Shown here: positions 35,314 to 51,500 of the stretch, piece by piece
Layout of the letters: the number at the start of each line of letters is the position of its first letter
Numbering within the stretch: position 1 is the first letter of the stretch
Assembly: GCF_004117055.1 (NCBI RefSeq)
Contig: NZ_CP026363.1
Location: 2,162,001 to 2,226,000 of the forward strand
Source of the DNA: Brevibacillus agri
Lineage (GTDB): Bacteria > Bacillota > Bacilli > Brevibacillales > Brevibacillaceae
Direction of reading: 5' to 3'
Length of the DNA: 64,000 nt
Program-made: the position numbers and the translations under genes
The notes under the pieces: generated by a model
Database searches by the model: none
What the model was told of the DNA's origin: nothing
The model's input: the letters and a program-made list of their open reading frames with translations, nothing else

Positions 35314-35389
35314 GATCCGGTAGCTCAGTTGGGAGAGCACCATCTTGACAGGGTGGGGGTCGCTGGTTCGAACCCAGTCCGGATCACCA
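35314..35389 (+). tRNA. tRNA-Val (GAC), attachment site of the integrated element
   Basis: A 76-base cloverleaf with acceptor GATCCGG / CCGGATC, anticodon loop TTGACAG (GAC) and encoded CCA. The gene is intact. Its 3' part from the anticodon loop onward is duplicated at 51453-51500, marking integration of the 16-kb element into this gene. Confidence 0.93.
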
Positions 35390-35391
35390 TA
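35344..35391 (+). repeat. attL core (48-bp direct repeat)
   Basis: 48 bases identical to 51453-51500, covering the anticodon loop, T-arm, acceptor 3' side, CCA and two more bases of tRNA-Val. Sequence diverges at once on both sides. Confidence 0.93.
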
Positions 35392-35470
35392 ACAGATATA
35401 TCAAGGGTTTGAGCGACTTTTTAACACTTTGAAAAATAAGTGGTCGCATACAAACACGCTTTCAAATAGG

Positions 35471-35516
35471 AAGCACACTTTCTTTCAGTATCAGAAAACT
35501 GGAAGGGAGTGTGCTT
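35471..35516 (+). promoter_or_regulatory. Long hairpin covering the integrase ribosome binding site
   Basis: A nearly continuous 19-bp stem with G-T pairs: AAGCACACT-TTC-TTTCAGT pairs with ACTGGAA-GGG-AGTGTGCTT, loop ATCAGAAA, then TTTC. The GGAAGGGAG ribosome site of int sits inside the 3' arm. It can end tRNA transcripts at the attL junction and can hide the int ribosome site in readthrough RNA. Confidence 0.65.
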
Positions 35517-35520
35517 TTTC

Positions 35521-36441
35521 GTGTTATTAAAGTTTGCCATCAAAGATTTTAAGGACGATAGGGAATTTAAAAATCTGTCCCCTAAAACAATTGAATCGTA
35601 CATGTCAGCCCTCAATGAATTTCAGGATTATTGTGGCAAACAGGAAATTGTTGATGTAAGTGATGTAACTCCGAACACAGTTAAGAATTATCTTATGTAT
35701 TGCCAAAAGGAACGAAACAACAATGTTACAACCAGAAACAGTAAGTTGCATGTCCTCAAGATATTCTTCAACTATCTTGAAGAAATCGAAGTCATTACGC
35801 AGAAACAAAATCCAGCCAAAAAAATCGGCTATGGTAAAGAGGACATTAAGATTGAAGTGTTTCAGGATCGGCATATTCAACAAATGCTAGGTTATTACAG
35901 ACGATTGAAGCAGCGTGAAAAATCATTCTTTGCTTATAGGGACTATACAATGATTGTGTTCCTCCTTGGGACAGGTGTTAGGTTAGGTGAAATGGTTAAT
36001 CTGTCGTGGAATGAAGTCGATTTGAAAAATGGTACTATCATTGTCTTTGGAAAGAAACGTCAACAAAGTTCCATTCCGATTACGGAAAAGTTAATCAAAG
36101 AACTGTGTGAGTACAGGGTATATTGTGAGCAGACGTTTGGTGAAGTTCCTCAATATGTTTTTACTGATGTAGAAGGTAAAAAACTTACGGACAATGCAGT
36201 TAAATGTGTTTTTAAACGGTTGAAGGAAATCATGAATTTCCCTGATTGCCGCTTATCAGCTCATACCTTTAGACACACGTTTGCCCATCGGATGTTGATG
36301 AACGGTTGTGATGTTTTCACATTGCAAAAAATGCTTAGGCATTCGAATATTGCTATGACTCAAAGGTATTTGGCAATTTGGGGTGTTGCTTTGGCTTCTC
36401 AAAATGAAAAATTTAATCCTTTAAACTCCTTAGAGATATAA
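35521..36441 (+). CDS. Tyrosine recombinase / integrase
   Basis: A 306-residue XerC/D-like integrase. The N-terminal SAM-like core-binding domain includes NLSPKTIESYMSALNEFQDYC. The catalytic residues are Arg in LLGTGVRLGEM, His-x-x-Arg in SAHTFRHTFAHRM, His in MLRHSNIAMTQ and the nucleophile Tyr in RYLAIWG. GTG 35521 follows GGAAGGGAG. It lies next to attL and points into the element, and it presumably catalyses integration into and excision from tRNA-Val. No obvious excisionase is adjacent; the small genes that follow are candidates. Confidence 0.9.
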   Translation: MLLKFAIKDFKDDREFKNLSPKTIESYMSALNEFQDYCGKQEIVDVSDVTPNTVKNYLMYCQKERNNNVTTRNSKLHVLKIFFNYLEEIEVITQKQNPAKKIGYGKEDIKIEVFQDRHIQQMLGYYRRLKQREKSFFAYRDYTMIVFLLGTGVRLGEMVNLSWNEVDLKNGTIIVFGKKRQQSSIPITEKLIKELCEYRVYCEQTFGEVPQYVFTDVEGKKLTDNAVKCVFKRLKEIMNFPDCRLSAHTFRHTFAHRMLMNGCDVFTLQKMLRHSNIAMTQRYLAIWGVALASQNEKFNPLNSLEI

Positions 36442-36455
36442 GGGGTGGGCAAGCA

Positions 36456-36665
36456 ATGACTCCACTCCAAAAATCTGATATACAGTCGCTGATCGGAAAA
36501 AAGATCAAAGTGCTAATGGCTGGACGGTTTTATCAACGTGTATTGCATGAAGATAGCCAAGGACTACACATTAAATACGCCAATCATCGTGTACCTGTCA
36601 AACCCGACTTAAACACACTCCATATCCTGTATTTCACAGCCCTAAAGCCAAAGGGGGTGAAATAA
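36456..36665 (+). CDS. Small satellite protein, unknown
   Basis: A 69-residue basic protein starting MTPLQKSDIQSLIGKKIKVLMAGRFYQRV. The strand-rich pattern (VLMAGRFYQRVLHEDSQGLHIKYANHRVPVK) suggests a small beta-barrel. AGGGGTGGG precedes the ATG. Its stop overlaps the next start as TAATG. Position after int is where excision or regulatory genes usually lie, but no HTH is visible. Confidence 0.6.
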   Translation: MTPLQKSDIQSLIGKKIKVLMAGRFYQRVLHEDSQGLHIKYANHRVPVKPDLNTLHILYFTALKPKGVK

Positions 36666-36856
36666 TGTCCTTAGCATTACGCCTTTGGCGTGATGACACT
36701 TTACATGAGGAATTACAGTCCATTACTTTACGTCATATTTCTTTGGCGAAAGAGTTTTCCGAGAAAGCCACGACAACTGAACGCCGCCAAGCAATCATGC
36801 AAGAAATTGAAGCATTGCGCCAAAAACGAAATGAAATCCTGAATCATCAAAACTAA
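36665..36856 (+). CDS. Small helical satellite protein, unknown
   Basis: 63 residues, predicted helical (RHISLAKEFSEKATTTERRQAIMQEIEALRQKRNEIL). It is coupled to the previous gene by TAATG overlap. The high Arg/Lys/Glu content is compatible with a small nucleic-acid or protein-binding factor. I do not recognise a family. Confidence 0.6.
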   Translation: MSLALRLWRDDTLHEELQSITLRHISLAKEFSEKATTTERRQAIMQEIEALRQKRNEILNHQN

Positions 36857-36869
36857 GGGAGGATTCACC

Positions 36870-37139
36870 ATGCAAAAAACTGAAACCAAAAAAGCGTACA
36901 TTTGCTATTGCCCATCGCTTGAAGATTGGTTTGTAACAATTGACGAAGAGGAAGCAAAACAATATGAACATTATCTTGCGTCCATTGATGATCTGAAAGA
37001 TGCAGTATGTTTGGGTGATAATCCAATTGACGGGATTATCAAAGTTGAAGAAGGGCTTTGCAAGTACGTCATTGATTATGATGAAGATGGGGAAATTGAT
37101 TCGGCTGGTTATCAATTGATTCAGGAGGTAGCTGCGTAA
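36870..37139 (+). CDS. Small acidic satellite protein, unknown
   Basis: 89 residues, strongly acidic (IDEEEAKQYEHYLASIDDLKDAV, VIDYDEDGEIDSAG). AAGGGAGGATT precedes the ATG. Its stop overlaps the next start by one base. The acidic character recalls DNA-mimic or anti-restriction proteins, but this is only a composition argument. Confidence 0.6.
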   Translation: MQKTETKKAYICYCPSLEDWFVTIDEEEAKQYEHYLASIDDLKDAVCLGDNPIDGIIKVEEGLCKYVIDYDEDGEIDSAGYQLIQEVAA

Positions 37140-37243: not shown

Positions 37244-37250
37244 CACATTC

Positions 37251-37512: not shown

Positions 37513-37566
37513 GTTTGTACGAAATCACTATTAATACATTATTTATTATTTTTGTTTGTACGAAAT
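37513..37566. repeat. Two 13-bp direct repeats GTTTGTACGAAAT
   Basis: Copies at 37513-37525 and 37554-37566 sit either side of the inverted-repeat element in an AT-rich gene-free stretch. The core GTACGAAAT recurs inverted at 44117-44125. They could be iteron-like binding sites. Confidence 0.6.
37517..37552 (+). repeat. 36-bp inverted repeat, left copy
   Basis: A perfect reverse-complement match to 44090-44125, in noncoding DNA. Identity starts at GTACGAAATC and ends in TATTTT. The flanks do not match. Confidence 0.9.
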
Positions 37567-37652
37567 GGGGTACAACAGGTATTATTACTTCCAACACATA
37601 AATATCGAACCTGATATTTATAAATTAGTTGATGTGCTAGTTAAATATTTAT

Positions 37653-37937
37653 ATGAATACAAAAAAAAGCAATTACAAAACAACATTATGGTCAAGTTTT
37701 GGTGATATTCTAGTTGAGAATCTAAAGAGAAATCTTCAAAGAAAATATGGTGAAAAGAATATACAGTGTGATGGTTGCGGTGAAAGAATTGAAGCTGTTT
37801 CAAATAGAAAGAAATATTGTAATGTTTGTTGGAGGGAAAAAGAAAGGCAATTAAAGAGGAAAAGTTGGCATAAAAATAAGAGTAAATATAAAAATACTAG
37901 AAGTTTAGAAAAAACCTTGCAAACCCTTGATACATAA
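37653..37937 (+). CDS. Zinc-ribbon minigene product (most complete copy)
   Basis: A 94-residue basic protein. A helical N-terminal part (SSFGDILVENLKRNLQRKYG) is followed by a four-Cys ribbon, CDGCGERIEAVSNRKKYCNVCW, and a Lys/Arg-rich helix (REKERQLKRKSWHKNKSKYK). It is likely a small DNA- or RNA-binding protein. No ribosome site is evident ahead of the ATG. At least three further degenerate copies of the C-terminal half follow in tandem, each ended by the same small hairpin, so this is the head of a decaying gene array. Confidence 0.55.
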   Translation: MNTKKSNYKTTLWSSFGDILVENLKRNLQRKYGEKNIQCDGCGERIEAVSNRKKYCNVCWREKERQLKRKSWHKNKSKYKNTRSLEKTLQTLDT

Positions 37938-39267
37938 TGGATTTTCGAGCAACTAGTTTAATAAATAAAAATACAACATACCTGAAAAACGTTGATAAAT
38001 CAACACTTGTGCAAAAGACCATTTAAAACAGGATGGTCTCTAAGGGAAACATAGAAACAATATTCAAAGTTTGCTCTAAAAGAATAAAGCCCACTGGCAA
38101 GAATCATAAAATGTGTCGCGAATGTTGGAATGAATATCGCAGAAAATATAAAACTGAGAAACAAAGAGAATATCGAAAAAAACAATCCTGTGGACACTTT
38201 TAAAATCGCTGTAACCCTTAATACATAAGGGATTCAGCGCTTGTTACTCAATTTTCTATTATGGATATAAAATAAAAATAACGACCGAACGAACATACTG
38301 AAAACACGGTATTTTTCAACAATCATTGATATATCAACATTTGTAGCACTTATTTCAAATTGTAGATAATCGTCTTTAAGGGAAGAGGTGAAAACTTTAC
38401 CAATTAGAATGGTATTTATCAGAATAGGTAATACAGGAAAAAAATTAAATGTGAAGTCGTTTTTTGGTATTTATCAGAATAGGTAATACTGGGAAAAATC
38501 ATAAGATGTGTCGTGATTGTTGGAAAGATCATCGAAGGAAATACAAAACAGAAAAGCAGCGAGAATATAGGAAAAAATAAATTTGTGGACACTTTTAAAA
38601 AACTTTGCAAACCCTTGATACATAAGGATTTTTTAACCTTTTGATAATATAAATTAAAAAATACATATACAAAAAACATTGATAAATTAAGGTTTCTTTA
38701 GCTATACCGTTAAAAACGGATGGTCTCTAAGGGAAGTAATGCAATCTAATCTACTGGAAAAAACCATAAGATGTGCCGTGAATGCTGGAAGAAAAACGAA
38801 AAAGAAATAAAAAGACGCGTATGGCATGAAAATAAGCAAAAATATAGACGCTAGAAGTTTTTAGTAGTGCCTTCTCTCCTACAGCCACATGGGTTTCAGC
38901 ATTCCATATTGATTTTTCTATTATGGATAAAAAACAAAATTAAAATGACGAAAACGAACACAAATAATTTTTATAACATGATTCAAATATCCTTTATTTT
39001 CAAGGTTTTTCCTGTCTATTTGCTACATGGAAATAATCGTCTATAAGGGAACTAGACAAAATAAACATGTCCATAATGCTCAATGTATTGATTTATAAGG
39101 ATAATTTAACATAGAGATAATCGCCTATAAGGGAACTAGCGAAAACGAACATACCTTATTTTTTTAATGCCTTGATATTACTGGACTTTTTGCTACTGAG
39201 TTAATCGTCTATAATAAACAAAAATATATCTAATCATTTAGAATGGTATTTATCAGAATAGGTAATA
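37900..39267 (+). repeat. Tandem array of decayed zinc-ribbon units and associated noncoding repeats
   Basis: A unit of roughly 330 bases is reiterated. Each contains an AT-nGTCT-nTAAGGGAA box (38033, 38366, 38720, 39034, 39118, and a partial at 39203). Three contain a TGKNHKMCRECW-type fragment (about 38093, 38487, 38751), and three have an AACCCTT-GATACAT-AAGGG hairpin (37922, 38212, 38607). A 23-base word starting GGTATTTATCAG occurs exactly at 38411, 38466 and 39245. Only one fragment (38033-38203, 56 codons) still has a start, and it has lost its first Cys. No other gene lies here. Confidence 0.7.
38033..38203 (+). pseudogene. Truncated zinc-ribbon copy
   Basis: A 56-codon frame MVSKGNIETIFKVCSKRIKPTG followed by KNHKMCRECW and a basic tail. 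The first Cys of the expected CxxC reads Phe (IFKVC), so the zinc site is broken. The start lies inside the repeated TAAGGGAA box. It is probably a remnant of the gene array. Confidence 0.45.
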
Positions 39268-39377
39268 TCTATGGAGTAAATTTCATTGATTGCCTACCAA
39301 GTGTAGACGATGAATGAAGGGCTACTCCCTTCCAATTTCAGTTTTCAATATATCTAATACTCTCCCCTTTTAAGAAG

Positions 39378-39444: not shown

Positions 39445-39657
39445 TTGGATGCTAATGGCTTACCAATTGAGATGATAGTATCACAAGGCATCTTTGCAGT
39501 ATTATTCGTCTGGCTTTTCTTAGATAGTCGTAAAGAATCGAAAGAAAGGGAAATTAGGTTGCTTGAACAAATTGACAAGCAAAACCAGGCACAGGACAGA
39601 ATTGTTCAGGCAATTGAAGGTTTAGAAAAACAAGTAACTGCATTAACGAAACCATAA
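39445..39657 (+). CDS. BhlA/UviB family holin-like protein
   Basis: 70 residues: a short N-terminus, one membrane helix (SQGIFAVLFVWLFLD) and a charged amphipathic tail (KESKEREIRLLEQIDKQNQAQDRIVQAIEGLEKQ). This matches the BhlA/UviB family of Firmicutes phage holins and bacteriocin-release proteins. The start is TTG at 39445, with AAGGAGGTGAT ideally placed. No endolysin gene is near, so it would need a helper enzyme or a host autolysin for lysis. It heads the capsid gene cluster. Confidence 0.75.
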   Translation: MDANGLPIEMIVSQGIFAVLFVWLFLDSRKESKEREIRLLEQIDKQNQAQDRIVQAIEGLEKQVTALTKP

Positions 39658-39669
39658 GGAGATGTTTGA

Positions 39670-40092
39670 ATGGAAGAGAATCAAACTTTTACACAAGAGC
39701 AGGTAAATGAATTACTAGAACAAGAAAAATCCAAATGGGAGTCAGAAGTATTGAATCCGATTCAAACTGAATTGGCAAAGTATAAGCCAGCCGAGAAATC
39801 TGATGCTGAAAAGGCATTAGAACAAAAACAAGCCGAGTTGTGGCAAAAGGAAATTCAATTAACGCTTAAGTCAGAAGGCCTTGAAGCATTTGCCGATTTC
39901 TTTCAAGTCAAAGATACTGATGAACTTACTGCGAAGGTTAAGAAGCTAAAAGAAATAATTAACGGTATGAAGATTGATAATAGTTACAAACCTGATAATG
40001 GTCATAAAGTTTCCGATAGATACAGTCAACATGAAAAGAGTGGAAATGTCGTTGGAATGATCGAATCCAAATTGGCGAGTTTGTTCAAGTAG
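39670..40092 (+). CDS. Phage scaffolding protein
   Basis: 140 residues, highly charged and helical, with coiled-coil stretches (TFTQEQVNELLEQEKSKWESEV, EKALEQKQAELWQKEIQLTLKSEGLEAFADFFQV). This is typical of DUF4355/GP20-like scaffolds, which sit directly before major capsid genes, as here. GGAGATGTTTGA precedes the ATG. It would template the procapsid shell and then leave or be degraded. No protease gene was found. Confidence 0.72.
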   Translation: MEENQTFTQEQVNELLEQEKSKWESEVLNPIQTELAKYKPAEKSDAEKALEQKQAELWQKEIQLTLKSEGLEAFADFFQVKDTDELTAKVKKLKEIINGMKIDNSYKPDNGHKVSDRYSQHEKSGNVVGMIESKLASLFK

Positions 40093-40151: not shown

Positions 40152-41042
40152 ATGTTCAAATCTAACAATCTAACTACAACTGAATCTATTTCTCTTTCCA
40201 AGGAAATCACAAAAATCGGTGTACAGGATACTCCTCTTGTATCTCTGTTGCTGGAAAAAGGACGTACTGAAAAAGCTAACGGAACCGTCCACACTTGGCG
40301 TGAACGTGTTCTCGATGACACCCAAGACATTTCTGTTCCAGAGGGCAACGAGAGTGTAACATTCTATCAAAGTGGTCGTGCTGAATTGTCTAACGTACTT
40401 GAGATTTTCCAAAAGGGTGTTAGCATCAGCGGGACAAGCAATGCCATTAACGTACAGGGACAAGGGAATATTTTCTCCGCTGAGGTTGCGGATCGCCTTA
40501 CAGAGTTAAAGGTCAACCTTGAAAAAGCGGTAACTAAAGGTGTAAAAAATGACGGTTCTACTGCTCCTTTCATCCGTAAGATGCAAGGTCTTGAAGGTTG
40601 GGCTGATCCTGCAAATATGATTACTGGTGCAACAAGCGGTCAGATTACAGAAGATGAGGTAAAAGCAACGGTTAAAAAGCTTTGGGATCAAGGTCTGCCA
40701 ACTGGAGAATACTTTGGATTGGTCAATGCTGACATGAAAGAACAGATTGATGCACTATACAAAGATAAATACAACTACATTGCTCAGCAAAATGTATTTG
40801 GTCTTGTCGTTGACACAATCCGAACAAATTACGGAAATCTAAATCTGATTCTTTCTCGTCATGCTTCTGCTGACAGGTTGACTGTATTTGATCCTAATTA
40901 CCTTTCTCTTGCATTCCTTCGTGATGCTCGATTCGAGCCACTCGCCAAAGTTGGCGATTCAGTTCGTGGTCATGTTGTGGCTGAAGGAACATTGAAAGTT
41001 GCTTCTAAGAAAGCAGTTGCCGTTTACACACTTAAAGCATAA
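40152..41042 (+). CDS. Major capsid protein (SU10/DUF5309-like, HK97 fold)
   Basis: A 296-residue capsid subunit. It resembles the SU10/DUF5309 major capsid family: the N-terminal ISLSKEITKIGVQDTPLVSLL, VHTWRERVLDDTQD, a central helix-rich part, YGNLNLILSRHASADRLTVFDPNYLSLAFLR and the closing LAKVGDSVRGHVVAEGTLKV strand pair. AAGGAGATG precedes the ATG. It directly follows the scaffold gene. Its presence means the element can build its own shell. Confidence 0.8.
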   Translation: MFKSNNLTTTESISLSKEITKIGVQDTPLVSLLLEKGRTEKANGTVHTWRERVLDDTQDISVPEGNESVTFYQSGRAELSNVLEIFQKGVSISGTSNAINVQGQGNIFSAEVADRLTELKVNLEKAVTKGVKNDGSTAPFIRKMQGLEGWADPANMITGATSGQITEDEVKATVKKLWDQGLPTGEYFGLVNADMKEQIDALYKDKYNYIAQQNVFGLVVDTIRTNYGNLNLILSRHASADRLTVFDPNYLSLAFLRDARFEPLAKVGDSVRGHVVAEGTLKVASKKAVAVYTLKA

Positions 41043-41121
41043 TTTCATAGATACATAGATGGGGATAGGGCTTAATCGCTCTATCCTCTTTTCAAATCAT
41101 TTTTGGGAGGAAATGATTAAC

Positions 41122-41304
41122 ATGACAGAAAGAGAACAATGGATGCTCAAACGTAAACAGAAACGCATCCGATTGATTCAGATTGCCAAATATATTGGCT
41201 GCTCAATCAGTTTATTAAGCCGTTGGGAATGTAACACATGTGAGATTTCAAAAAATAAATTAGACAAATACAAACAATTTATTGAGATATACAAATCAGA
41301 TTAA
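41122..41304 (+). CDS. XRE-type helix-turn-helix regulator
   Basis: A 60-residue small DNA-binding protein with a Cro/C1-type HTH (RLIQIAKYIGCSISLLSRWECNTCEISKNKLDKYKQF). GGGAGG precedes, with ATG 41113 or 41122 possible; the second is better spaced. It lies between capsid and replication genes, an unusual place for the only recognisable repressor-like protein of the element. Confidence 0.7.
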   Translation: MTEREQWMLKRKQKRIRLIQIAKYIGCSISLLSRWECNTCEISKNKLDKYKQFIEIYKSD

Positions 41305-41316: not shown

Positions 41317-41425
41317 ATGCACGACACAACATAACGCTTTCTCCCTATGCTGAATGTCTAGGGAGGAAGCACAGCAATAATATTAGTAGGAAGCGTCTAT
41401 GTTTAATCGGCATAGTCGCATATGA
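41317..41425 (+). promoter_or_regulatory. Leader with two tiny peptides and hairpins ahead of the 41422 gene
   Basis: ATGGAGGTG drives a 5-codon frame (MHDTT, 41317-41334). A CTCCCTA / TAGGGAG hairpin follows (about 41343-41386), then an 8-codon frame (MFNRHSRI, 41399-41425) whose stop overlaps the ATG of the next gene as ATGA. The next gene has no ribosome site of its own, so it depends on translation of the leader. Confidence 0.5.
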
Positions 41426-42237
41426 AACAAGAATTAAAACAGAAGTATCCAATTTGGTGTGCTGATCAAGAGTTTGGGAAGTTTGATACCGTCCTAGGTG
41501 ACGATATTGATACCTTGCTAGGATGTTCCCTGCTTAAAGCTATCAAAGGATACAATATCAATTGGTTTTATGATTTTCACGATATGTTTGGCATCAATTT
41601 AACCAATTGTAAAGAGCCAATAGGCGTAGATATGGCATTGGTTAAGCATAAATGTTGGGATAATCATTTAACGATGATGAGCGCAAGCGACTACTTTAAT
41701 CCGCAATCAGCAAACATAAATAACATTAAAAAGAATCATCGTGGACATTATGGTAATAAATATGCTGGTTCAACATTACTTCAAATTTGGTCTTACTATG
41801 ACATACCGCTTCCACAATCAGACCGTGGTAAAGCAATATTACTTGCGGTGGATGTTGCTTTTAAAGGCCATTATAGTAAACGATTCAATTACATACATAA
41901 TCATTATCTGAGAGAACTAGGTTTTGAAGAATTAATTGACGTACTTAATCGTCATACTATGGATGAGATGTATAAAGTCATCTATGCGTATAATCTGCAT
42001 GGGAAAATTAGAATCAATGGAAATGGAAAGCTTCAAACCAACATTAACCTTGCCGAGCTGCAAGGTTTTTTTGATTTCGACATATCTTTGCCTACAGATG
42101 AATTTCAACATGTTAGAGCATATAAGCGCAAAGGTGAAGATATCGTTGGTAAAAAGACGTATGACATGGATAAGATATTTTCATTTGCTTTGACATCACA
42201 AGATCATGTGTCATTTACTGAGAAGATAATTTTATAA
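41422..42237 (+). CDS. Satellite protein of unknown function
   Basis: A 271-residue soluble protein that I do not recognise. It is rich in aromatic residues and His. Notable segments: KFDTVLGDDIDTLLGCSLLKAIKGYNINWFYDF near the N-terminus, with clustered Asp that could bind metal; GVDMALVKHKCWDNHLTMMSASDYFNPQ; and NHRGHYGNKYAGSTLLQIWSYY. The Asp-rich start recalls DHH-type phosphoesterases or other metal enzymes of phage replication modules, but no motif is decisive. It begins at ATG 41422 inside the stop of a leader peptide. It lies next to the primase, suggesting a replication or helper-interaction role. Confidence 0.6.
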   Translation: MKQELKQKYPIWCADQEFGKFDTVLGDDIDTLLGCSLLKAIKGYNINWFYDFHDMFGINLTNCKEPIGVDMALVKHKCWDNHLTMMSASDYFNPQSANINNIKKNHRGHYGNKYAGSTLLQIWSYYDIPLPQSDRGKAILLAVDVAFKGHYSKRFNYIHNHYLRELGFEELIDVLNRHTMDEMYKVIYAYNLHGKIRINGNGKLQTNINLAELQGFFDFDISLPTDEFQHVRAYKRKGEDIVGKKTYDMDKIFSFALTSQDHVSFTEKIIL

Positions 42238-42539: not shown

Positions 42540-44006
42540 TTGACAATTGACCAAAAAATAATCATTAACAAACTGAATGACTTATATTTTATTCAACGGA
42601 AGCATTATCTAATCCAATATAAAGAGCCAATTGGATATCGGCAATATACAGCAGGACACATTAACAGTAAAGGTAAAAAGGTAAAACCGCTTCAAGATTG
42701 GCAATTTGAAAAACATCTTGAAGGTGAATATACAATTGGAACTTTTGCAAAGTTTTTCAGTAAGTTTATGACGTTTGATGTAGATTTTCAAGATAAACAA
42801 ATGGCAAAATGGATTACATACAATGTCGCCAATACACTAAATGGATTAGGAATTAAACACTACATAAGTTATAGCGGTAACAAGGGCTATCATATTGATT
42901 TATTCTTTGAGGATTTAATCCGAGTCGATTACGCCGAGAAGTTTTTCCAATACGCCATATCTCAATCAGATATAGAACAATACTTTGACGAAGCAAATAA
43001 AGTAGAATTTCGGGTAACGGATAAATTAGGCGTTAAAATACCGCTTGGCATACACCAAAGAACAGGTAACTTTTGCGGATTCTGTTTGATTGAAGATGGT
43101 TTAAGGGTAATGGATGCACAAGAAAGCCAAGAATACCTATTATCCATTGAAAAAATGAAATCTGAAACAATCATTGATATCATTGGTGAAAGTGGCGAAA
43201 AAATCAAGAAGAAAACCATAATCCAGACAGAGGATGCACTTGCACAACATAAACCATTACCAAGTTATGAACCAAATGAAGATTATTCGATTGATCGGGC
43301 AATTAACTTGTTACACAATGGATTACAGATACAAGGAAGCCGTAACAATTCAATATTCCTAGTCGGATTGTATTTTAAGTACATGGGACTTGAGCAGGAA
43401 CAAACGATTGTAGAATTGTATAAATGGATGGAATTGCAGAATCCAGATACATATACAACCAAGCTGGAAGAGTGTTACAAAGAAATTGACCGCACAGTAA
43501 AAAATATGTATGAGAAAAATTACAATTTGACAGCCAATGTTAAAGATTTAACTGTAACCTACACTGAAATCAAATGGATAATCGAACATTGTCCAGAGAA
43601 GAATCAGAAGCTAATTGCATACGCTATGTTGATACACTCTAAACGCTTTGCTAATGCACAAGGCGTTTTTTATATGACGTTTAAGGATATTGAGAAGGTT
43701 ACTGGATTGTATGACCAAGCGGTACAGCGACAAGTAAATAAACTAATTGAACTTGGAGTCATTGAAGTAGTTGAACGTAACAGGAAACAAAAAGGAAAAG
43801 GATTACAGAAAAAGTTGCCAAATTTATATCGAATGAACATCGTGTGGCAGAATTCTGCCGAACGTAATGACAATCCAAGTTTGGATTTTGAGAATTATAT
43901 ACCAAATAAGCAAAATGATTTTTCTGATTGTCTGAAATTCTATTTCACTGATAAGGAATTGAAGAAGATATTACCTAGACGACAATATGAAAGTTTAGTT
44001 GGTTAA
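42540..44006 (+). CDS. Archaeo-eukaryotic-type primase (PrimPol) replication protein
   Basis: 488 residues. The N-terminal half is an AEP/PrimPol domain: the catalytic DxD in FMTFDVDFQD (residues 80 and 82), SGNKGYHIDLFFE (the S-G-x-x-G-x-H motif, His 118), and KIPLGIHQRTGNFCGF (166-181), as in primases of TOTE and small-plasmid systems. The middle is helical (PriCT-like). Residues ~370-430 form a winged helix (MTFKDIEKVTGLYDQAVQRQVNKLIELGVIEVVERNRKQKG) that may bind the origin. The start is the TTG at 42540, after GGGAGATGAGACA. It supplies autonomous replication, as in many satellites. No separate helicase is visible. Confidence 0.78.
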   Translation: MTIDQKIIINKLNDLYFIQRKHYLIQYKEPIGYRQYTAGHINSKGKKVKPLQDWQFEKHLEGEYTIGTFAKFFSKFMTFDVDFQDKQMAKWITYNVANTLNGLGIKHYISYSGNKGYHIDLFFEDLIRVDYAEKFFQYAISQSDIEQYFDEANKVEFRVTDKLGVKIPLGIHQRTGNFCGFCLIEDGLRVMDAQESQEYLLSIEKMKSETIIDIIGESGEKIKKKTIIQTEDALAQHKPLPSYEPNEDYSIDRAINLLHNGLQIQGSRNNSIFLVGLYFKYMGLEQEQTIVELYKWMELQNPDTYTTKLEECYKEIDRTVKNMYEKNYNLTANVKDLTVTYTEIKWIIEHCPEKNQKLIAYAMLIHSKRFANAQGVFYMTFKDIEKVTGLYDQAVQRQVNKLIELGVIEVVERNRKQKGKGLQKKLPNLYRMNIVWQNSAERNDNPSLDFENYIPNKQNDFSDCLKFYFTDKELKKILPRRQYESLVG

Positions 44007-44125: not shown

Positions 44126-44236
44126 ATACATATTTAATATCCAATAGGAATACTGGGAATTGAGTTATTCATGGTGGCTATTTATCAAGGTAGTCACCTT
44201 TTCTATTTTAAAACAAAACTAAGGAGGATTTTCTCT

Positions 44237-44473
44237 ATGGATAATAAACACTTGAAGGAATTGGACGAGATATTAGATAGCTTAAAGGAAACGAACCGTA
44301 AACTTACAGCAATGGCTGAAAAGTACGGAATCAAATATGATCCCAATATTGATGTAAATGCAACATTAACGCGATTAATGGAGAAATACGGGATTGAATA
44401 CGATCCTAATTATGATGTTAGAGCTGCTTTAGAAAGAATGCTGGAAAAGTATCAAGGTGGTGACACACAATGA
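44237..44473 (+). CDS. Small repeat protein ahead of terminase
   Basis: 78 residues with an internal duplication: EKYGIKYDPNIDVNATLTRLM and EKYGIEYDPNYDVRAALERML are successive copies of a ~21-residue unit. The N-terminus is a charged helix (LKELDEILDSLKETNRKL). AAGGAGGATT precedes the ATG. It overlaps the terminase small subunit by ATGA, so it is probably a packaging-module protein, for example a DNA-recognition or regulatory partner (inference). Confidence 0.6.
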   Translation: MDNKHLKELDEILDSLKETNRKLTAMAEKYGIKYDPNIDVNATLTRLMEKYGIEYDPNYDVRAALERMLEKYQGGDTQ

Positions 44474-44859
44474 ACATATATGATGTAATTGCCAAGTTAC
44501 CGTTTCCGAAGCAACAATACATAAAGTATCGGTTTAACCTTTGGTATGACACAAACAAGACCATGACCGAGGAAGAGTTTTTGAAAACCGTAAACAAAAA
44601 GACGATGAACAGTTTCCATAAATGGGAGCGTACTGACGAATTTAAAAATATAGCCAGCATGGTATTGGCGACAAAAACCGCACAGGATTTAATTGACATG
44701 TACGAAGCCGTAAGGGATAAAGCGGTTAAAGGTGATGAAAAAGCGGTTAAGTTGTTGCTTACTCTCCAGAAAGAAATTGAACATCATAAACAACAAGCTT
44801 TAAAAGCGTTTGGAAATATTGTTGAACAAGAGGAAGAAGATGACGATTTAGAACTGTAG
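44470..44859 (+). CDS. terS: Terminase small subunit
   Basis: A 129-residue helical protein with an N-terminal HTH-like region (MTEEEFLKTVNKKTMNSFHKWERTDEFKNIASMVLATKTAQDLIDMYEAV). An EAVKLLLTLQKEIEHHKQ helix and an acidic tail follow, characteristic of phBC6A51-type small terminases of Bacillus phages. It recognises the packaging site on DNA. It is coupled to the upstream small gene and directly ahead of the large subunit. Confidence 0.75.
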   Translation: MNIYDVIAKLPFPKQQYIKYRFNLWYDTNKTMTEEEFLKTVNKKTMNSFHKWERTDEFKNIASMVLATKTAQDLIDMYEAVRDKAVKGDEKAVKLLLTLQKEIEHHKQQALKAFGNIVEQEEEDDDLEL

Positions 44860-44914
44860 TGGGGTGTCTAATATGGCACTCCCTTTATTGTTTTACCTGA
44901 AAGGATGTGAAACG

Positions 44915-46504
44915 GTGGCTGCACTAACTAAAAAACAAAAACTTGAAAAGATAATGGGTTCATTTGAACTGTTTGCCAAGAATTTCATTTATATTACAGA
45001 CACAAAAAACCAGAAAGTAAAGTTTAACCTAAACTCAGCACAAATTGAATTGGATGAGTTAATAGAGAATAATCGTTTTGTTGTGGTGAATAAAGCGAGA
45101 AAAGCGGGCGTATCTACATACATGCTCGCAGCGGCACTTTGGCGTTGTTGCACAAGGGAGAACGAGAGTATTTTGATTGTTTCGTATAAAACAGATTCGT
45201 CTAAATATTTATTTGAGACACTGAAAAAGATGAACATGTGGCTACCAAGAGATCAATACCCTGACTTATTTCCCGAAACAAAAAGGGATTCGAGAGATGA
45301 ATTATTATTTGAAAATGGTAGCCGAGTTGTTTGTGCAGTGGCAGGCAACAAAGAAATTGCTAGGGGCTTTAGTCCGACATGGACACACCTTTCAGAATTT
45401 GCCCATTATGCCAATCAAGAGAAACAGTTACTATCCGTTGAACAGGCATTGATTGACAATGGAAAACTGACCATAGAAACGACAAGTAATGGGACAAACA
45501 ACCATTATTATAAGTTGTTTATGTCTGCCTACAAGGGCAACTCAAAGTATAAACCTTATTTCATACCGTTCTATCATGAATTATATAAAGAACAGAATCG
45601 CAATCAACATGACGAAGCGGAAGAATGGTTTAAGGCAAACAATAAAGGGAATCGGCTCAGAGAAAAGGATTTAGAGCCAGATGAGAAGATCCTATTTGAA
45701 AAAGGTGCTAATTTACGTTTCCTGATGTGGCGTAGATATAAATTGCTTGATATGACTTTGCAGGAGTTTTATCAGGAGTATCCTAGCAATCCAATGGAAT
45801 CATTTATTTCTACGGGTCAAAGTGTTTTCGACCAATCCAAAGTGTTAGAACGTCTGAATTACATTTTAGAGCCACTTTCAACGAATGAAGTATATAGCCA
45901 GTTACCAGACGTTTTAAAGCTATATATAAACAGAGGATTGTACATCTACAAATTGCCTAAAAAGGGAATCAAAATGTTTGGTGGAGTGGATACTGCCAGT
46001 GGATCAGGTGGCGACTATTCAACAGTAACCATTTTTGATAATGAAGGCGAACAGGTGCTGAGTTTTTATCATAACAAAGTACCTGTTTATCTTTTTGCTG
46101 AAATAGTGGATACAATCGGGAAATGGTGTAACTATGCTTACCTTGCTATCGAAAGGAATAACCTGGGTCTACCATTAATTGAACGTCTACGGAAAGATTA
46201 TGAATACATGAACCTTTTGAAGCAGAAAGTATTCGATCAGAAAGGCAAAAAGAAGCTTCAATTGGGCTGGACAACAACGAATACTTCTAAATCAATCATG
46301 ATTAGTGACTTTAAAGAACAATTTGAAAGGGGTTTTATTAATCTCCACTGTAAAGAAACCCTTCAACAGATGCAGATATTCCAAGAAGTAGACGGAAAAA
46401 TGAACAATAAAAAAGGTGAAGGTAATCACGACGATTTGATCGTGGCGGCTGCGCTTGCGTGCCAAGCGATGAAACAAAATAAATATTATGTTGATATTGC
46501 GTAA
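44915..46504 (+). CDS. terL: Terminase large subunit
   Basis: About 529 residues. The ATPase half has the Walker A-like NKARKAGVST and the Walker B region WTHLSEFAHY. The C-terminal RNase H-like nuclease begins FGGVDTASGSGGDYSTVTIFD with catalytic Asp residues, later NHDDLIVAAALACQA. The enzyme cuts and pumps DNA into procapsids through the portal. GTG 44915 with AAGGATGTG is the preferred start; upstream in-frame starts at 44864 and 44873 add an implausible hydrophobic stretch. Having its own large subunit separates this element from SaPI-type satellites that borrow one. Confidence 0.9.
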   Translation: MAALTKKQKLEKIMGSFELFAKNFIYITDTKNQKVKFNLNSAQIELDELIENNRFVVVNKARKAGVSTYMLAAALWRCCTRENESILIVSYKTDSSKYLFETLKKMNMWLPRDQYPDLFPETKRDSRDELLFENGSRVVCAVAGNKEIARGFSPTWTHLSEFAHYANQEKQLLSVEQALIDNGKLTIETTSNGTNNHYYKLFMSAYKGNSKYKPYFIPFYHELYKEQNRNQHDEAEEWFKANNKGNRLREKDLEPDEKILFEKGANLRFLMWRRYKLLDMTLQEFYQEYPSNPMESFISTGQSVFDQSKVLERLNYILEPLSTNEVYSQLPDVLKLYINRGLYIYKLPKKGIKMFGGVDTASGSGGDYSTVTIFDNEGEQVLSFYHNKVPVYLFAEIVDTIGKWCNYAYLAIERNNLGLPLIERLRKDYEYMNLLKQKVFDQKGKKKLQLGWTTTNTSKSIMISDFKEQFERGFINLHCKETLQQMQIFQEVDGKMNNKKGEGNHDDLIVAAALACQAMKQNKYYVDIA

Positions 46505-46516: not shown

Positions 46517-47890
46517 ATGAGTATTCAACAATACGTTTTAGAAAAATTTGACGGGAATCTAGAATGGTTTGTGGAGGAATGCAAAAAGGTATATCATCAA
46601 CAACGTGTCAATCATGTACTTGACTTACGAGAATATCTGAACGGCAAACATAAAATCTTGAATCGGAGTGTAGAAGTATGGAACGGAAAAGAATACTACC
46701 CTAGAACCATTGTTCTAAATCTGGCAAAAAATATACTAAACTTTGAATCAACATACTTGTTAGGTAACCCGATCACTATTTCCGGCAAAGATGCAACAGT
46801 TAAGAAGTTTAAGAAGGTGTGGCGGAAAGGTAACTATGATAGGGTAACGAAAAAGATTCTGGACAATGTGATTAAATATGGGATGTGTTGGGAAGTTTGC
46901 TATCTGGATGAAAATAAGGATATTCAGAGCTATATCGTAAAGCCGGAGGATGGATATGAAGTCATTTCGCCGGATAATAAATATATTGGATTCATTGAAC
47001 ATTATGTAGTTGATGGATGCTCTTACTACAATGTGTTTTATGAAGATCGGATTGAGAAATGGGACGATGTAGGTGGACAATTAAGGAAGGTTGCAGAGTT
47101 TACGAATATTAGTGGCCTTCCAATCAGGTATAAGAATGACCAGAACGAATTGGACGAGAATAGTGGGCGCAGCAGTTTAGAGGATATTATTCCATTAATT
47201 GATCAGCTAGAAGATGTATTATCTAAATTTTCTGATTCATTTTACAAACACCACAATCCACTAATGATTATATCAGGCCAGATCCTAAAAGGGGATGGGT
47301 TTAATCCGCATTTGGTCGGTAATGCGTTGAATTTAGATGACGGTTCTACGGCAGATATGATATCCAATAAACTGGATCACATGAGTTTCAAAGAGATATA
47401 CGGGACGATATATCAAGCCCTTTTGACAATTTCTAATACACCTGGCATTGCTATGTCATCAGTTGAGTTGAGCAATATCTCAGAAACGTCCTTACTTCTA
47501 CTCTATTCTGTAGCGGATGTACGTGGTGCATTAAATGAATCATGGCTTAAAGAAGGGTTAATGGAAAGGTTAAAGGTGTTTAAGAAGTTAATGGAGTTAA
47601 AAGGAATTGCGGTTAATCAAGATGATTTCGATGAATTAGAGTTAATATTCCAATATGCTCGTCCTAAGAATAGAACTGAAATTGTTGATAACATCGTTAA
47701 GCTGCGTAGTATTAATATGCTTAGTTTGGAAACAGCCGTTGAGCAGAACCCATATACGTCAAATAAGGCACAAGAGATGGATCGACTTAGAGAAGAACAG
47801 ATGGAAAATAATATGGGAAATAAAAAAGATAAAGATGATAAGAAATCTGATGATTTAGGAAATAAAGATGGGCAACAAATGCAAGAATGA
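46517..47890 (+). CDS. Portal protein (SPP1 gp6-like)
   Basis: A 457-residue portal of the SPP1_Gp6 family. Recognisable parts: DLREYLNGKHKILNR, NLAKNILNFESTYLLGNPI, VKPEDGYEVISPDNKYIGFIEHYV, LIDQLEDVLSKFSDSFYKHHNPLMIISG and the SNISETSLLLLYSVADVRGALNESW helix, then a charged low-complexity tail. It forms the dodecameric vertex through which DNA enters. AAGGAGG precedes the ATG. It follows terL directly, the usual packaging order. Confidence 0.9.
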   Translation: MSIQQYVLEKFDGNLEWFVEECKKVYHQQRVNHVLDLREYLNGKHKILNRSVEVWNGKEYYPRTIVLNLAKNILNFESTYLLGNPITISGKDATVKKFKKVWRKGNYDRVTKKILDNVIKYGMCWEVCYLDENKDIQSYIVKPEDGYEVISPDNKYIGFIEHYVVDGCSYYNVFYEDRIEKWDDVGGQLRKVAEFTNISGLPIRYKNDQNELDENSGRSSLEDIIPLIDQLEDVLSKFSDSFYKHHNPLMIISGQILKGDGFNPHLVGNALNLDDGSTADMISNKLDHMSFKEIYGTIYQALLTISNTPGIAMSSVELSNISETSLLLLYSVADVRGALNESWLKEGLMERLKVFKKLMELKGIAVNQDDFDELELIFQYARPKNRTEIVDNIVKLRSINMLSLETAVEQNPYTSNKAQEMDRLREEQMENNMGNKKDKDDKKSDDLGNKDGQQMQE

Positions 47891-48408: not shown

Positions 48409-48678
48409 ATGTCGGAACAGTATCAAAATGGTAAAGCAAAAGCGGTTAAAACAGTCGCTAATATTCAAGTTGTAGTTGGTATCATTGCCGGAATAGTAGC
48501 AGGTAATATCACAAGGGATTTTAGTTGGAGTATTGCAATTTATGTATGGGTTGCTTCAATTTTTTCGACAATAATTCTGCATGGCTTCGCTGAAGTTATT
48601 GAACTTTTATCTGATATCTATAAGAAGATAAATATTTTAGAAGAAATCAAAAATAAGATTAACAAACCAGTTGCTTAG
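48409..48678 (+). CDS. Small two-helix membrane protein
   Basis: 89 residues with two hydrophobic helices (VVVGIIAGIVAGNI and IAIYVWVASIFSTIILHGFAEVIELL) and a charged coiled tail (IYKKINILEEIKNKIN). The family is unknown to me. Small membrane proteins in this position in satellites and prophages often act in superinfection exclusion or lysis timing. Its ribosome site is in a hairpin, so expression is probably regulated or low from readthrough RNA. Confidence 0.6.
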   Translation: MSEQYQNGKAKAVKTVANIQVVVGIIAGIVAGNITRDFSWSIAIYVWVASIFSTIILHGFAEVIELLSDIYKKINILEEIKNKINKPVA

Positions 48679-48704
48679 TGCCATATGCATATGGAGGATA
48701 ATCT

Positions 48705-49736
48705 ATGAGACATAGCCGACTTATTAAATGTTTCTTCGTCCTTACTTTGCTGTTGAGTGTATTAGGATTTGAAAAAGTCGGATCAGCAGAAGATTACCCA
48801 CCTGTTACAGTCAAGATAAATGATAAAGCAATACAAGGACAAAATGGAATAGTAGATGGTGGTACCATATTTATTCCAGCAAAAGCTGTCTTTGAGAATT
48901 TAGATATTAAAGTCGAATGGGATCAATCAACAAGCACCCTAAAAGGTTATCAGTTTGACACTATTAGAATTGAGATTAGCCCGAATAAAGATTTAGGAAA
49001 ACTAGATGGAAAACCTTTCTTAATGGATTTTCCACCCAAGGTTGTCAATGGTACGCTTATGGTTCCTTCATCACTTATTACCCAGTTATTTAATTACGAG
49101 GTTAAGTTTGAGCCAATTGCAAATATCGTAAAAATAGATAAAACACAACTGATAGCAGTTGATCCTTATGCCAGTTATAACAAGATGAAAAAGGAATTAG
49201 AGCAAAAATATAATCTGACTAACAACGGTAATAATGTCGTAAATAATCAAGAGAGCGAAAAATTAAAGCAGTTTAAGAATGCGATAAAAGATTACATGGG
49301 CAGAACAATATGGACTAGAACCACTCTCATGAAAGATGCAGATGGTAAATATGTAGATGTTGAAAAATTTGCACCCATGTGGATATTAGAAATCAAAGAA
49401 GATACTTTTTTTACCTTGAAACTTAAATCAGGTGACATGATTTATTATCTGACAGCATATGATGAATACAGTGTACATTTTGGATTTTTACTATCCAATC
49501 CGTATACAACGTACAAATGGTCAAATAAGGTATGGGATCACATTAAAAAGAATTCTGTATTTGTTGGAATGAATGAAGATATGGTTTGGCTATCATGGGG
49601 ACTTCCAACAAGAAAAAATGTCTCTAAATATGCTTGGGGAACAGAAGAACAATGGGTTTATGATCTAAAATCTCAAGGAACAAAGTATTTGTACTTTAAG
49701 AATGGCATATTAACGTCAATTCAAACATCAGAATAA
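48705..49736 (+). CDS. Secreted protein with copper-amine-oxidase-like N-terminal (stalk) domain
   Basis: 343 residues with a Sec signal peptide (RLIKCFFVLTLLLSVLGFEKVGSAED, cleavage near residue 29). Then comes a Cu_amine_oxidN1-type domain (VKINDKAIQGQNGIVDGGTIFIPAKAVFENLDIKVEWDQSTSTLKG, LDGKPFLMDFPPKVVNGTLMVPSSLI), and a C-terminal domain ending with a lipoprotein-like NEDMVWLSWGLPTRKN repeat seen in some Bacillales cell-surface proteins. GGAGG precedes the ATG. It is not a structural phage gene. It is probable cargo that alters the host surface, perhaps against phage adsorption (inference). Confidence 0.65.
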   Translation: MRHSRLIKCFFVLTLLLSVLGFEKVGSAEDYPPVTVKINDKAIQGQNGIVDGGTIFIPAKAVFENLDIKVEWDQSTSTLKGYQFDTIRIEISPNKDLGKLDGKPFLMDFPPKVVNGTLMVPSSLITQLFNYEVKFEPIANIVKIDKTQLIAVDPYASYNKMKKELEQKYNLTNNGNNVVNNQESEKLKQFKNAIKDYMGRTIWTRTTLMKDADGKYVDVEKFAPMWILEIKEDTFFTLKLKSGDMIYYLTAYDEYSVHFGFLLSNPYTTYKWSNKVWDHIKKNSVFVGMNEDMVWLSWGLPTRKNVSKYAWGTEEQWVYDLKSQGTKYLYFKNGILTSIQTSE

Positions 49737-49741
49737 TGATC

Positions 49742-49768
49742 AATACTCCTAGTCAACGGCTAGGAGTG
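49742..49768 (+). terminator. Hairpin between cargo and connector genes
   Basis: CTCCTAG / CTAGGAG stem with loop TCAACGG and a short TGTTT tail, right after the secreted-protein gene. A weak terminator or processing site. Confidence 0.45.
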
Positions 49769-49795
49769 TTTACATTTCTAAAGGAGGAACCAAAC

Positions 49796-50146
49796 GTGGA
49801 CAATAAAGCAAGATTGGAAATGGAAATCAAAGGTATTACTCTTACACCTGATGAAATCAATGTTTATCTAGCCGAAAATAGCTTAAATGCCACTGATACA
49901 TACAATGCAACTGACAAGGCACAAACGAGAAAGATATACGAAACGGCATTGTCCATTTTAGAAAGCATTGGCAACCAACCGCACTTAATGAAAAATTACA
50001 CGTCAGATGACCAGACAGTTTCCCAATTCCATGAAAACCTAATGGCACGAATCGACCAACTAGAAAACAAAATCCGCAAGATGAAAATTGACGAAGATAA
50101 AGCAGCTAATCAAAATGGCTCTTTTTTTATGCTCTTTAATCAGTAA
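49796..50146 (+). CDS. Head-tail connector (adaptor) protein
   Basis: A 116-residue helical protein (DNKARLEMEIKGITLTPDEINVYLAENSLNATDTYNATDKAQTRKIYETALSILESIGNQP) resembling gp15-type adaptors that sit under the portal in SPP1-like heads. GTG 49796 is chosen because AAAGGAGGAACC is well placed. It pairs with the next gene as the head-completion module. Its presence in a tailless element is what a satellite docking onto helper tails would need. Confidence 0.6.
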   Translation: MDNKARLEMEIKGITLTPDEINVYLAENSLNATDTYNATDKAQTRKIYETALSILESIGNQPHLMKNYTSDDQTVSQFHENLMARIDQLENKIRKMKIDEDKAANQNGSFFMLFNQ

Positions 50147-50157
50147 GGGGGATGTAC

Positions 50158-51291
50158 ATGATTAACCTATTTCAGTCCAATCCAGATGACTTCCAATACA
50201 TCCTTGACACTATTGGTCAGAATGTACAAATCAATAACCAATCTGTAAAAGTGGTCATTTCAAATACGACACTTTCAACCGATGTTGATGATAAAAAGAT
50301 AAGTACCCTTACGCCAATTGAACGTGGCGATATTGTCCATTACAACAATGAGGATTGGTTGATTATCTCCGAAGTAAATGGACAGCGTAATGGACGTTAC
50401 AGGGCGTTTATGCGTGTCTGTGATTATCCGATTAAGATTAATTTTGGCATTGTAAAAGAGTTTCCTGCCATTGTTGATGGGCGCGTGTTTGACGTGGAAA
50501 CTGGCCAATATATGACCTTGCCAGCAAGTAAGATTCTTGTCACTCTCCAAGAAAATCAAGAAACATTGGAAATTGAAGCTGGGCAGCGATTCATTAAAAT
50601 GGGCAGAGCGTGGAAAGTAGAAGCTATTGACAGAACTCATAAAGGGTTACTCAGATTGTGGTGTAAACAGGATCAGTTTAACTCAGCAGTTGACGATGTG
50701 GAGAATGAAATTGCTGATGCAAGGAAATATGTTTATGTGGTAGATATAACTAACACCGAAACAACCATTCAACAAGAAAATACATTACAGTTGAATGTGT
50801 CTGTCACACTTAATGGTCAATCTGTTTCGGGCATGGCAATTACATTTAGTTCAAGCGATACTAATATTGCTACAGTTGACACCAGTGGATTGGTTACTGC
50901 GGTTAATCCTGGAACTGTAACCATTACGGCTGCATTGGCTGAAAAATCAGATGTTAAGGATACTATCACACTCACTGTTGAAGCAGTTCAGCAAGACAAT
51001 TACGTTTTAACAATCGTTGGTGATCCTGATATGAGAGTGACTCAAACTAAAACATGGAATGCCGTATTGACCAACAACGGTCAACAAGTTTCAATGCAAC
51101 CGGCAACGTGGAGTATTACCAATACAACTGGAGGAACAACTGATCTCGTAACGATAACAAATCAGTCGAATAAAAGTTGCACGTTGAAAGCGAACAGCAA
51201 TAATAAAACAGGTTACTTCAAGTTGATTTGCACGCTGAATGATGGGAGTTTGACGTCTGAAAAGCAGATACTGGTTAAGAGCTTGATTTAG
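50158..51291 (+). CDS. Head-closure-like protein with bacterial Ig-like (Big_2) domain
   Basis: 377 residues. Residues ~1-180 resemble a head-completion or stopper protein (RGDIVHYNNEDWLIISEVNGQRNGRYRAFMRVCDY, RFIKMGRAWKVEAIDRTHKGLLRLWCKQDQ). Residues ~190-280 are a Big_2 Ig-like domain (SVSGMAITFSSSDTNIATVDTSGLVTAVNPGTVTITA), and a second Ig-like fold follows to the end. The ATG at 50158 is better spaced from AAGGGGG than 50152. Ig domains on phage head or tail proteins usually decorate the particle surface and bind sugars. This is the last gene before attR. Confidence 0.65.
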   Translation: MINLFQSNPDDFQYILDTIGQNVQINNQSVKVVISNTTLSTDVDDKKISTLTPIERGDIVHYNNEDWLIISEVNGQRNGRYRAFMRVCDYPIKINFGIVKEFPAIVDGRVFDVETGQYMTLPASKILVTLQENQETLEIEAGQRFIKMGRAWKVEAIDRTHKGLLRLWCKQDQFNSAVDDVENEIADARKYVYVVDITNTETTIQQENTLQLNVSVTLNGQSVSGMAITFSSSDTNIATVDTSGLVTAVNPGTVTITAALAEKSDVKDTITLTVEAVQQDNYVLTIVGDPDMRVTQTKTWNAVLTNNGQQVSMQPATWSITNTTGGTTDLVTITNQSNKSCTLKANSNNKTGYFKLICTLNDGSLTSEKQILVKSLI

Positions 51292-51452
51292 ATTTAAACA
51301 AACTTTGTGTATTATCGGAGATATTTTAAGGCGACCACTTGACTTCTTTTCCCGACTACTATATATTTATGATAATTGATACTGGAAGTAAGTGGTTTGA
51401 TATATCAAATACAATCCCAGTCAGTAAAAGGACAACATTTCGTTCCAGTTTA
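51292..51452. other. attR flank with palindrome, candidate integrase arm sites
   Basis: Gene-free, containing the perfect 14-base palindrome TTTGATATATCAAA near 51397. Short repeats of CCAGT (51417, 51445) and GACAACATTT lie nearby. These could be integrase or excisionase arm sites. Confidence 0.4.
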
Positions 51453-51500
51453 CTTGACAGGGTGGGGGTCGCTGGTTCGAACCCAGTCCGGATCACCATA
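51453..51500 (+). repeat. attR core (48-bp direct repeat)
   Basis: Identical to 35344-35391; only the 3' part of tRNA-Val is present here. It marks the right end of the element. Confidence 0.93.

What the first reader, a model, noticed from the sequence alone, without database searches (positions are those of the whole stretch)
35344..51500. Self-capsid-forming phage satellite in tRNA-Val with no tail, lysis enzyme or protease genes
Seen: a 16.2-kb element between 48-bp att repeats has integrase, PrimPol primase, small and large terminase, SPP1-type portal, scaffold, SU10-type capsid, two head-completion proteins and a BhlA-like holin. Nothing resembles a tail. Known: capsid-forming PICIs make heads and packaging motors and take tails from helper phages. 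Inference: this is such a satellite, possibly a new lineage. Its order is unusual (scaffold-capsid, then regulator and primase, then packaging, then connectors), and it carries its own large terminase.
Basis: partly seen in the sequence, partly recalled or inferred. Interest (0 to 1): 0.85.

Follow-up and report, generated by a model that had tools for sequence, protein, structure and literature searches.

The report
Satellite that builds its own heads
This stretch of bacterial DNA is a mobile element that carries genes for a virus head and DNA-packing motor but no recognisable tail genes, and it belongs to a widespread family of such elements in Gram-positive bacteria that most likely borrow tails from ordinary viruses.

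Summary
A 16.1-kb, low-GC element lies between identical 48-bp copies of a tRNA-Val end. It encodes integrase, scaffold, SU10-type capsid, primase, terminase and SPP1-type portal. No tail, lysin, head-protease or HNH gene was recognised. It is not a decayed prophage: 115 annotated loci (at least four near-duplicate pairs), from Bacilli and Clostridia where named, keep the order in 3852 of 3937 core-gene pairs. Three contigs look circular; one carries a tRNA-Val-like joined site. TerL proteins group apart from tailed phages (46 versus 8 rows, 100/98). In Brevibacillus fulvus a close copy sits beside a 54-kb contractile-tailed prophage at the same tRNA-Val. Best reading: a satellite making its own heads and taking tails from a helper. 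It works like a capsid-forming PICI but lacks the protease and HNH of those as described, so I do not file it there. Also new here: a conserved predicted DHH-superfamily protein and, in 37 of 115 loci, a beta-solenoid gene. Helper dependence and particles are inferred. The original cf-PICI paper was not held, so overlap with its Bacillaceae elements cannot be excluded.

The parts
35344..35391 (+). attL core, 3' end of tRNA-Val(gac) gene 35314-35389
35509..36441 (+). tyrosine integrase, 310 aa
   Evidence: PF00589 E 3e-33
36456..37139 (+). three small ORFs (69, 63, 89 aa); the first matches phrog_24088, unknown function
37513..39270 (.). mostly non-coding stretch with decayed zinc-ribbon mini-gene repeats (read by eye) and a 40-nt arm repeated inverted at 44090-44129
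39445..39657 (+). BhlA-like holin, 70 aa (TTG start)
   Evidence: PF10960 E 1.8e-8
39670..40092 (+). head scaffold, 140 aa
   Evidence: phrog_1793 E 4.5e-6; 109 of 115 loci
40152..41042 (+). major capsid protein, SU10 type, 296 aa
   Evidence: PF17236 E 3.5e-77
41059..41304 (+). small HTH regulator, 81 aa
   Evidence: weak HTH_3, phrog_8 E 6e-4; 107 of 115 loci
41422..42237 (+). g271: predicted DHH-superfamily phosphoesterase, 271 aa
42254..42493 (+). g79, small conserved protein (DUF5659-like, under Pfam's cut-off)
   Evidence: 92 of 115 loci
42540..44006 (+). primase: AEP domain 42-212 plus C-terminal replication-initiator-like winged helix, 488 aa (TTG start)
   Evidence: PF22548 E 2e-11, phrog_678, solved chain 7nqf E 1.9e-10
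44171..44473 (+). g100, unknown
   Evidence: 3 loci, two of them one strain
44470..44859 (+). small terminase (by position and weak profile), 129 aa
   Evidence: phrog_24579 E 0.006; 107 of 115 loci
44864..46504 (+). large terminase, 546 aa
   Evidence: PF17289, PF03237, phrog_2 E 1e-29
46517..47890 (+). portal, SPP1 type, 457 aa
   Evidence: PF05133 E 1e-68
48409..48678 (+). g89b, looks like a membrane protein (by eye), rare in the family
   Evidence: one locus, one more hit
48705..49736 (+). probably secreted protein with copper-amine-oxidase N-like domain; variable slot between portal and g136, probably cargo
   Evidence: PF07833 E 1.6e-16; 9 of 115 loci
49736..50146 (+). g136, probable head-tail adaptor (inferred), conserved
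   Evidence: 83 of 115 loci
50152..51291 (+). ig379, probable neck/head-closure protein (inferred): conserved N-domain, Big_2 domain 194-280, second Ig-like domain
   Evidence: PF02368 E 2.6e-11, phrog_16444 E 1e-54, model and fold rows
51453..51500 (+). attR core, identical to attL

Best explanation
An integrated phage satellite that makes its own small head and packaging motor and lacks a tail. Proposed cycle: a tailed helper phage is induced or enters; the satellite excises from tRNA-Val, replicates with its own primase-initiator, assembles heads from scaffold, SU10-type capsid and portal, and packs its DNA with its own TerS/TerL. The neck (g136, ig379) closes the head and accepts the helper's tail; the helper supplies lysis. 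Shown from sequence: the element, its gene content and order, the lack of recognisable tail and lysin genes, wide conservation of this state, circular-looking relatives, and a tailed prophage in tandem in B. fulvus. Inferred: induction, tail capture, neck function, transfer.
For: Gene content. 3852 of 3937 pairs of core genes in the same order over 115 loci. No tail or lysin family among the Pfam families shown (67 of 75) for 334 unassigned ORFs. Contigs with exact end overlaps of 123, 127 and 75 bp: L145 (about 16.3 kb) has a sequence matching 39 of 48 bases of the window's att between ig379 and int and no tRNA gene, as expected of an excised form. TerL grouping 100/98. B. fulvus: the satellite ends at att 14243-14290 (1 mismatch), then a prophage reaches att 68263-68310 (exact) at tRNA-Val, with a PF10145 tape measure and a sheath matching solved tail sheaths at E 4.5e-41. 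tRNA-Val lies next to the integrase also in three Paenibacillus loci, L118, L033, L032.
Against: No experiment. The window's genome shows no match for PF10145, PF04860 or PF05709, so no resident helper is evident; absence of three families is not absence of all prophages. Of the satellite-bearing genomes checked, PF10145 is in some and not in others. ig379's N-domain fold was not identified, so a stubby tail cannot be ruled out. g136 and ig379 have no head-completion profile. PHROG lists were cut at 25 of 70 and 25 of 65 families. The capsid tree gives weaker support (84/95). L179 and L042 show no att match at the 14-mismatch limit used.
Confidence: 0.8

Rival explanations
1. A tail-deleted remnant of an ordinary prophage.
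For: Head genes are phage-like; g271 also occurs in contigs that look like tailed phages, L068, L069, L073.
Against: The same block and order recurs in 115 loci; the window's named genes are open frames; TerL groups apart from tailed phages; circular-looking relatives. The tailed phages with g271 have other layouts.
Confidence: 0.04
2. A true member of the published capsid-forming PICIs (an already described Firmicutes branch).
For: Same strategy; cf-PICIs are reported from Bacillaceae and average 14 kb (PMC10803314, passages); capsids form three radiations (PMC11389934, passages).
Against: The described set includes a head maturation protease and an HNH endonuclease (PMC10690885, passages); neither was recognised here nor in the family lists shown for relatives.
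Confidence: 0.3
3. An autonomous virus with a minimal neck instead of a tail, using Ig-like and (in relatives) beta-solenoid proteins to bind cells.
For: ig379 is the last core gene in 68 of 75 loci that have it, and 37 of 115 loci carry the GLUG-type beta-solenoid protein, mostly before the scaffold.
Against: The window copy lacks the solenoid gene; no lysin gene recognised; entry through a Gram-positive wall without a tail is not known for this head type (recalled).
Confidence: 0.06
4. A genomic island whose head genes no longer make particles.
For: Variable cargo slots; some relatives have split TerL or portal frames (L017, L034, L078).
Against: Capsid, TerL and portal are found in 102, 106 and 102 of 115 loci, mostly as single open frames.
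Confidence: 0.05

Closest known systems
Capsid-forming PICIs (cf-PICIs)
   Same: About 14-16 kb, own capsid, portal and TerS/TerL, no tail; tails expected from a helper (PMC10690885, PMC10803314, passages)
   Different: No head protease or HNH recognised; SU10-type capsid with scaffold; SPP1-type portal; scaffold-capsid placed before regulator and primase; predicted DHH-superfamily protein
Streptomyces satellites MulchRoom and MiniFlayer (PMC10690885, passages)
   Same: TerS, TerL, portal, scaffold, capsid and adapter encoded by the satellite
   Different: Those lack primases, have direct terminal repeats and parasitise virulent phages; this one has a primase and sits in tRNA-Val
Classical PICIs, P4, PLE, PICMI
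   Same: Small integrated elements that need a helper (PMC10803314 and PMC11389934, passages)
   Different: They use the helper's capsid; this one encodes its own
Tailed phages with SU10-type capsid, e.g. Enterococcus phage SEsuP-1
   Same: Major capsid protein about 33% identical
   Different: Canonical portal-to-capsid-to-tail order with annotated tail genes

Membership tests
capsid-forming PICI | own major capsid protein and portal | tested here: met
capsid-forming PICI | own small and large terminase | tested here: met
   TerL clear, TerS weak profile plus conserved position
capsid-forming PICI | head-tail connectors | tested here: inconclusive
   g136 and ig379 conserved in place, no profile or solved-structure match for the role
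capsid-forming PICI | head maturation protease | tested here: not met
   none recognised in the window element nor among families shown for relatives (one Peptidase_M26_N hit is not a head protease)
capsid-forming PICI | HNH endonuclease with the packaging genes | tested here: not met
   none recognised in the window element; a weak HNH PHROG (E 0.014) lies on a zinc-ribbon ORF far from the packaging genes
capsid-forming PICI | no tail genes | tested here: met
capsid-forming PICI | mobilised with helper tails | not testable with these tools
   needs induction experiments
capsid-forming PICI | capsid within a published cf-PICI radiation | not tested
   paper not held
classical PICI/P4-like satellite | depends on helper capsid, no own capsid genes | tested here: not met
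   own capsid gene
tail-deleted prophage | close relatives with same order plus tails | tested here: not met
   none among the loci examined
DHH superfamily (g271) | DHH fold | tested here: met
DHH superfamily (g271) | metal-binding acidic and His motifs | tested here: inconclusive
   invariant D28, D30, D70, D80xH82, D144 read as DHH motifs by eye; motif pattern recalled

The most novel reading that the evidence does not exclude
A separate ancient radiation of self-capsid-forming elements whose particles need no borrowed tail at all: heads closed by an Ig-bearing neck protein and, in about a third of members, a beta-solenoid protein that together act as the host-binding device.
Probability: 0.06. 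Interest if true: 0.92.

Novelty: new variant of a known kind. Interest (0 to 1): 0.66.

Why it matters
It shows a differently built set of head genes that settled into a tailless, small-genome state and spread across Bacilli and Clostridia. That makes head-tail joining between unrelated elements testable: B. fulvus carries satellite and tailed prophage side by side. The conserved predicted DHH protein, placed between regulator and replication genes, points to a shared need such as replication or removal of signalling nucleotides. A good number of 12-19 kb viral contigs in public sets that may look like broken prophages probably belong here.

Tried and rejected
Tail genes hidden in unassigned ORFs: none among the Pfam families shown; the PHROG lists are truncated. 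Not scanned there: ORFs of the permuted contig L048 and those before the scaffold in L042, minus-strand ORFs under 150 aa (26 of 210), and 36 of 186 of the second set, mostly the solenoid proteins. Solved-structure searches with g136, ig379 and g271 gave nothing informative outside the Ig domain. Looking for a resident helper with four families found only the element itself. Empty site: the left flank (about 300 bp) matches four relatives at 93-96%, but the right flank matches only 0-47 bp past the att core in them (63 bp in L110); the window has remains of another element there, so no clean empty site was shown. First TerL tree needed two changes because two outgroup TerLs with branches near 6 (SEsuP-1, Lietuvens) were in it; they were dropped. 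First MCP tree joined SEsuP-1/VEsP-1 to the truncated L047; after dropping L047, L079, L139 and Gaia, support was 84/95, not decisive. Replication iterons: the 13-bp motif has 5 matches against 1.9 expected, 5 of 100 shuffles reach that: not shown. Promoter-like sites at chance level, terminator-like sites 17 against 8.6 expected. No Rfam match above gathering score beyond the two tRNAs. Plasmid records: capsid matches only at 32-35% in four.
Full report
What is there. The window holds a 16.1-kb element between identical 48-bp repeats, the left one being the 3' end of tRNA-Val(gac). Its GC is 0.32-0.38 against 0.51-0.56 outside. The genes I assign are all on the + strand: int, small ORFs, a 2-kb repeat-rich stretch, bhlA, scaffold, SU10-type capsid, small HTH, g271, g79, primase, g100, TerS, TerL, SPP1-type portal, a variable slot, g136, ig379. 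The host is probably a Brevibacillus or near relative (inferred from the closest named capsids, and B. fulvus).

A family, not a wreck. Scans of viral contigs and genomes with primase, capsid and g271 (one search kept 80 of 162 relatives) gave loci that I annotated with profiles grown from the window's proteins. I removed records that were the same contig or by eye the same strain, the five g271 loci without the head block (L037, L039, L068, L069, L073) and one fragment (L003); 115 loci remained. They are not all independent: L015 is identical to the window's element, and L035/L158, L036/L173, L063/L066 and L153/L154 share identical proteins. Scaffold is in 109, capsid 102, g271 104, TerL 106, portal 102, g136 83, ig379 75; many contigs are cut. 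In 3852 of 3937 cases two core genes stand in the window's order; of nine loci with exceptions, L042 and L145 look circularly permuted. The integrase is less fixed: in L017 and P. dokdonensis (L118) it lies inverted at the ig379 end. Ten loci with a scaffold lack a capsid match; ten unassigned ORFs (one and nine) hit phrog_544, major head protein, which I take to be those ten, though the listing does not name them. Capsid relatives number 498 at E 1e-10 (only the 7997 best candidates scored) and name Brevibacillus, Paenibacillus, Aneurinibacillus, Priestia, Bacillus, Niallia, Neobacillus and Clostridium tyrobutyricum among others (120 listed); I did not check that each of these sits in such an element.

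No recognisable tail. Unassigned ORFs were scanned with Pfam: 184 of 210 from the first set and 150 of 186 from the second. No tail, lysin, head-protease or HNH family was among the 67 of 75 families shown. Only 6 of 115 loci have an ORF of 600 aa or more between their first and last family gene; six of those seven ORFs were in the scanned set, the seventh (L048) was not, and I did not identify each. Contigs L042, L145 and L179 have exact end overlaps of 123, 127 and 75 bp, as circular assemblies do. L145 carries a sequence matching 39 of 48 bases of the window's att between ig379 and int with no tRNA gene: probably an excised form. L042 has no integrase match, so some members may be episomes.

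Relation to tailed phages. Primase, g271 and ig379, each as a single sequence, had no match in 50,697 phage records. TerL reached about 26% there and 29-32% in tailed prophages of Bacilli; capsid about 33%. SEsuP-1 and Lietuvens keep the canonical order. TerL: 46 representatives (of 108, 75% clustering) fall on one side against 8 tailed rows at 100/98. Six of the eight are Bacilli prophages whose TerL has a PF10145 tape measure about 10-11 kb away on the same strand (one below the curated cut-off). Capsid: 59 (of 62 representatives) against 6 (of 7) at 84/95. g271 also occurs in three contigs that look like tailed phages, one with clear tail-protein hits (L068), the others by layout, in another gene order; so g271 is not exclusive to satellites.

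Candidate helper. In B. fulvus (G028 contig 8, same length as NZ_JAFBEB010000008.1) the satellite runs off the contig end, its integrase side ends at an att copy 14243-14290 with one mismatch, and a 54-kb prophage follows to an exact att copy 68263-68310 at tRNA-Val. It has a tape measure and a tail sheath. Sharing a site is no proof of helping. The window's own genome gave no match for the three tail or portal families tried, and its only SPP1-type portal is the element's.

Neck and surface. ig379 has a conserved N-domain of unknown fold, a Big_2 domain and a second Ig-like domain. In 37 of 115 loci there is a beta-solenoid protein of about 420 aa, in 38 a 116-aa protein, usually in the run bhlA-116-solenoid-92 before the scaffold. 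Pfam's GLUG motif was found in 2 of 6 long proteins scanned and phrog_30905 in 5 of 6. The window copy keeps only bhlA. These could be head decorations or receptor-binding parts.

Literature. Seen: passages of PMC10803314, PMC11389934, PMC10690885; other papers only as search listings. The papers I looked up as the cf-PICI and SatelliteFinder originals (DOIs recalled) were not held. Searches for capsid-forming satellites with Paenibacillus and for tail piracy found no paper; this does not show that the lineage is unpublished.

Verdict. Works like a capsid-forming PICI; not filed as one because protease and HNH were tested and not met. New variant of a known kind.

Noticed in passing
window 37653-39270: Several decayed copies of a zinc-ribbon mini-gene (repeats D1-D4, D6, D9, D10); the first copy matches the C-terminal end of phrog_8308, whose large relatives stand beside g271 in the tailed-phage contig L068 and in C. 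ragsdalei L039.
   Followed up: partly
window 37513-37552 and 44090-44129: 40-nt inverted repeat, 98% complementary, either side of the capsid-primase segment; contains GTTTGTACGAAAT; possible origin or regulatory site.
   Followed up: partly
window 51624-52372: Second integrase-like frame, apparently broken, on the minus strand just beyond attR: remains of another element by the same tRNA-Val site.
   Followed up: partly
L110, L111, L112, L113: Other stretches with different integrases next to the same tRNA-Val core in relatives of the host, with a second core copy 10-20 kb on: an integration hotspot.
   Followed up: partly
L108, L120-L123: Another relative has DNA about 75% identical over tRNA-Val and the integrase gene; the next exact att core is about 63 kb away; content not identified.
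   Followed up: no
L042: About 14.4-kb circular-looking member without integrase match; may be an episomal satellite.
   Followed up: partly
window 60796-61983: ORF that looks like Cas1 of a CRISPR system (recalled, not searched).
   Followed up: no
window 48705-49736: Probably secreted protein with copper-amine-oxidase N-like domain in the variable slot; related proteins in 9 of 115 loci.
   Followed up: partly
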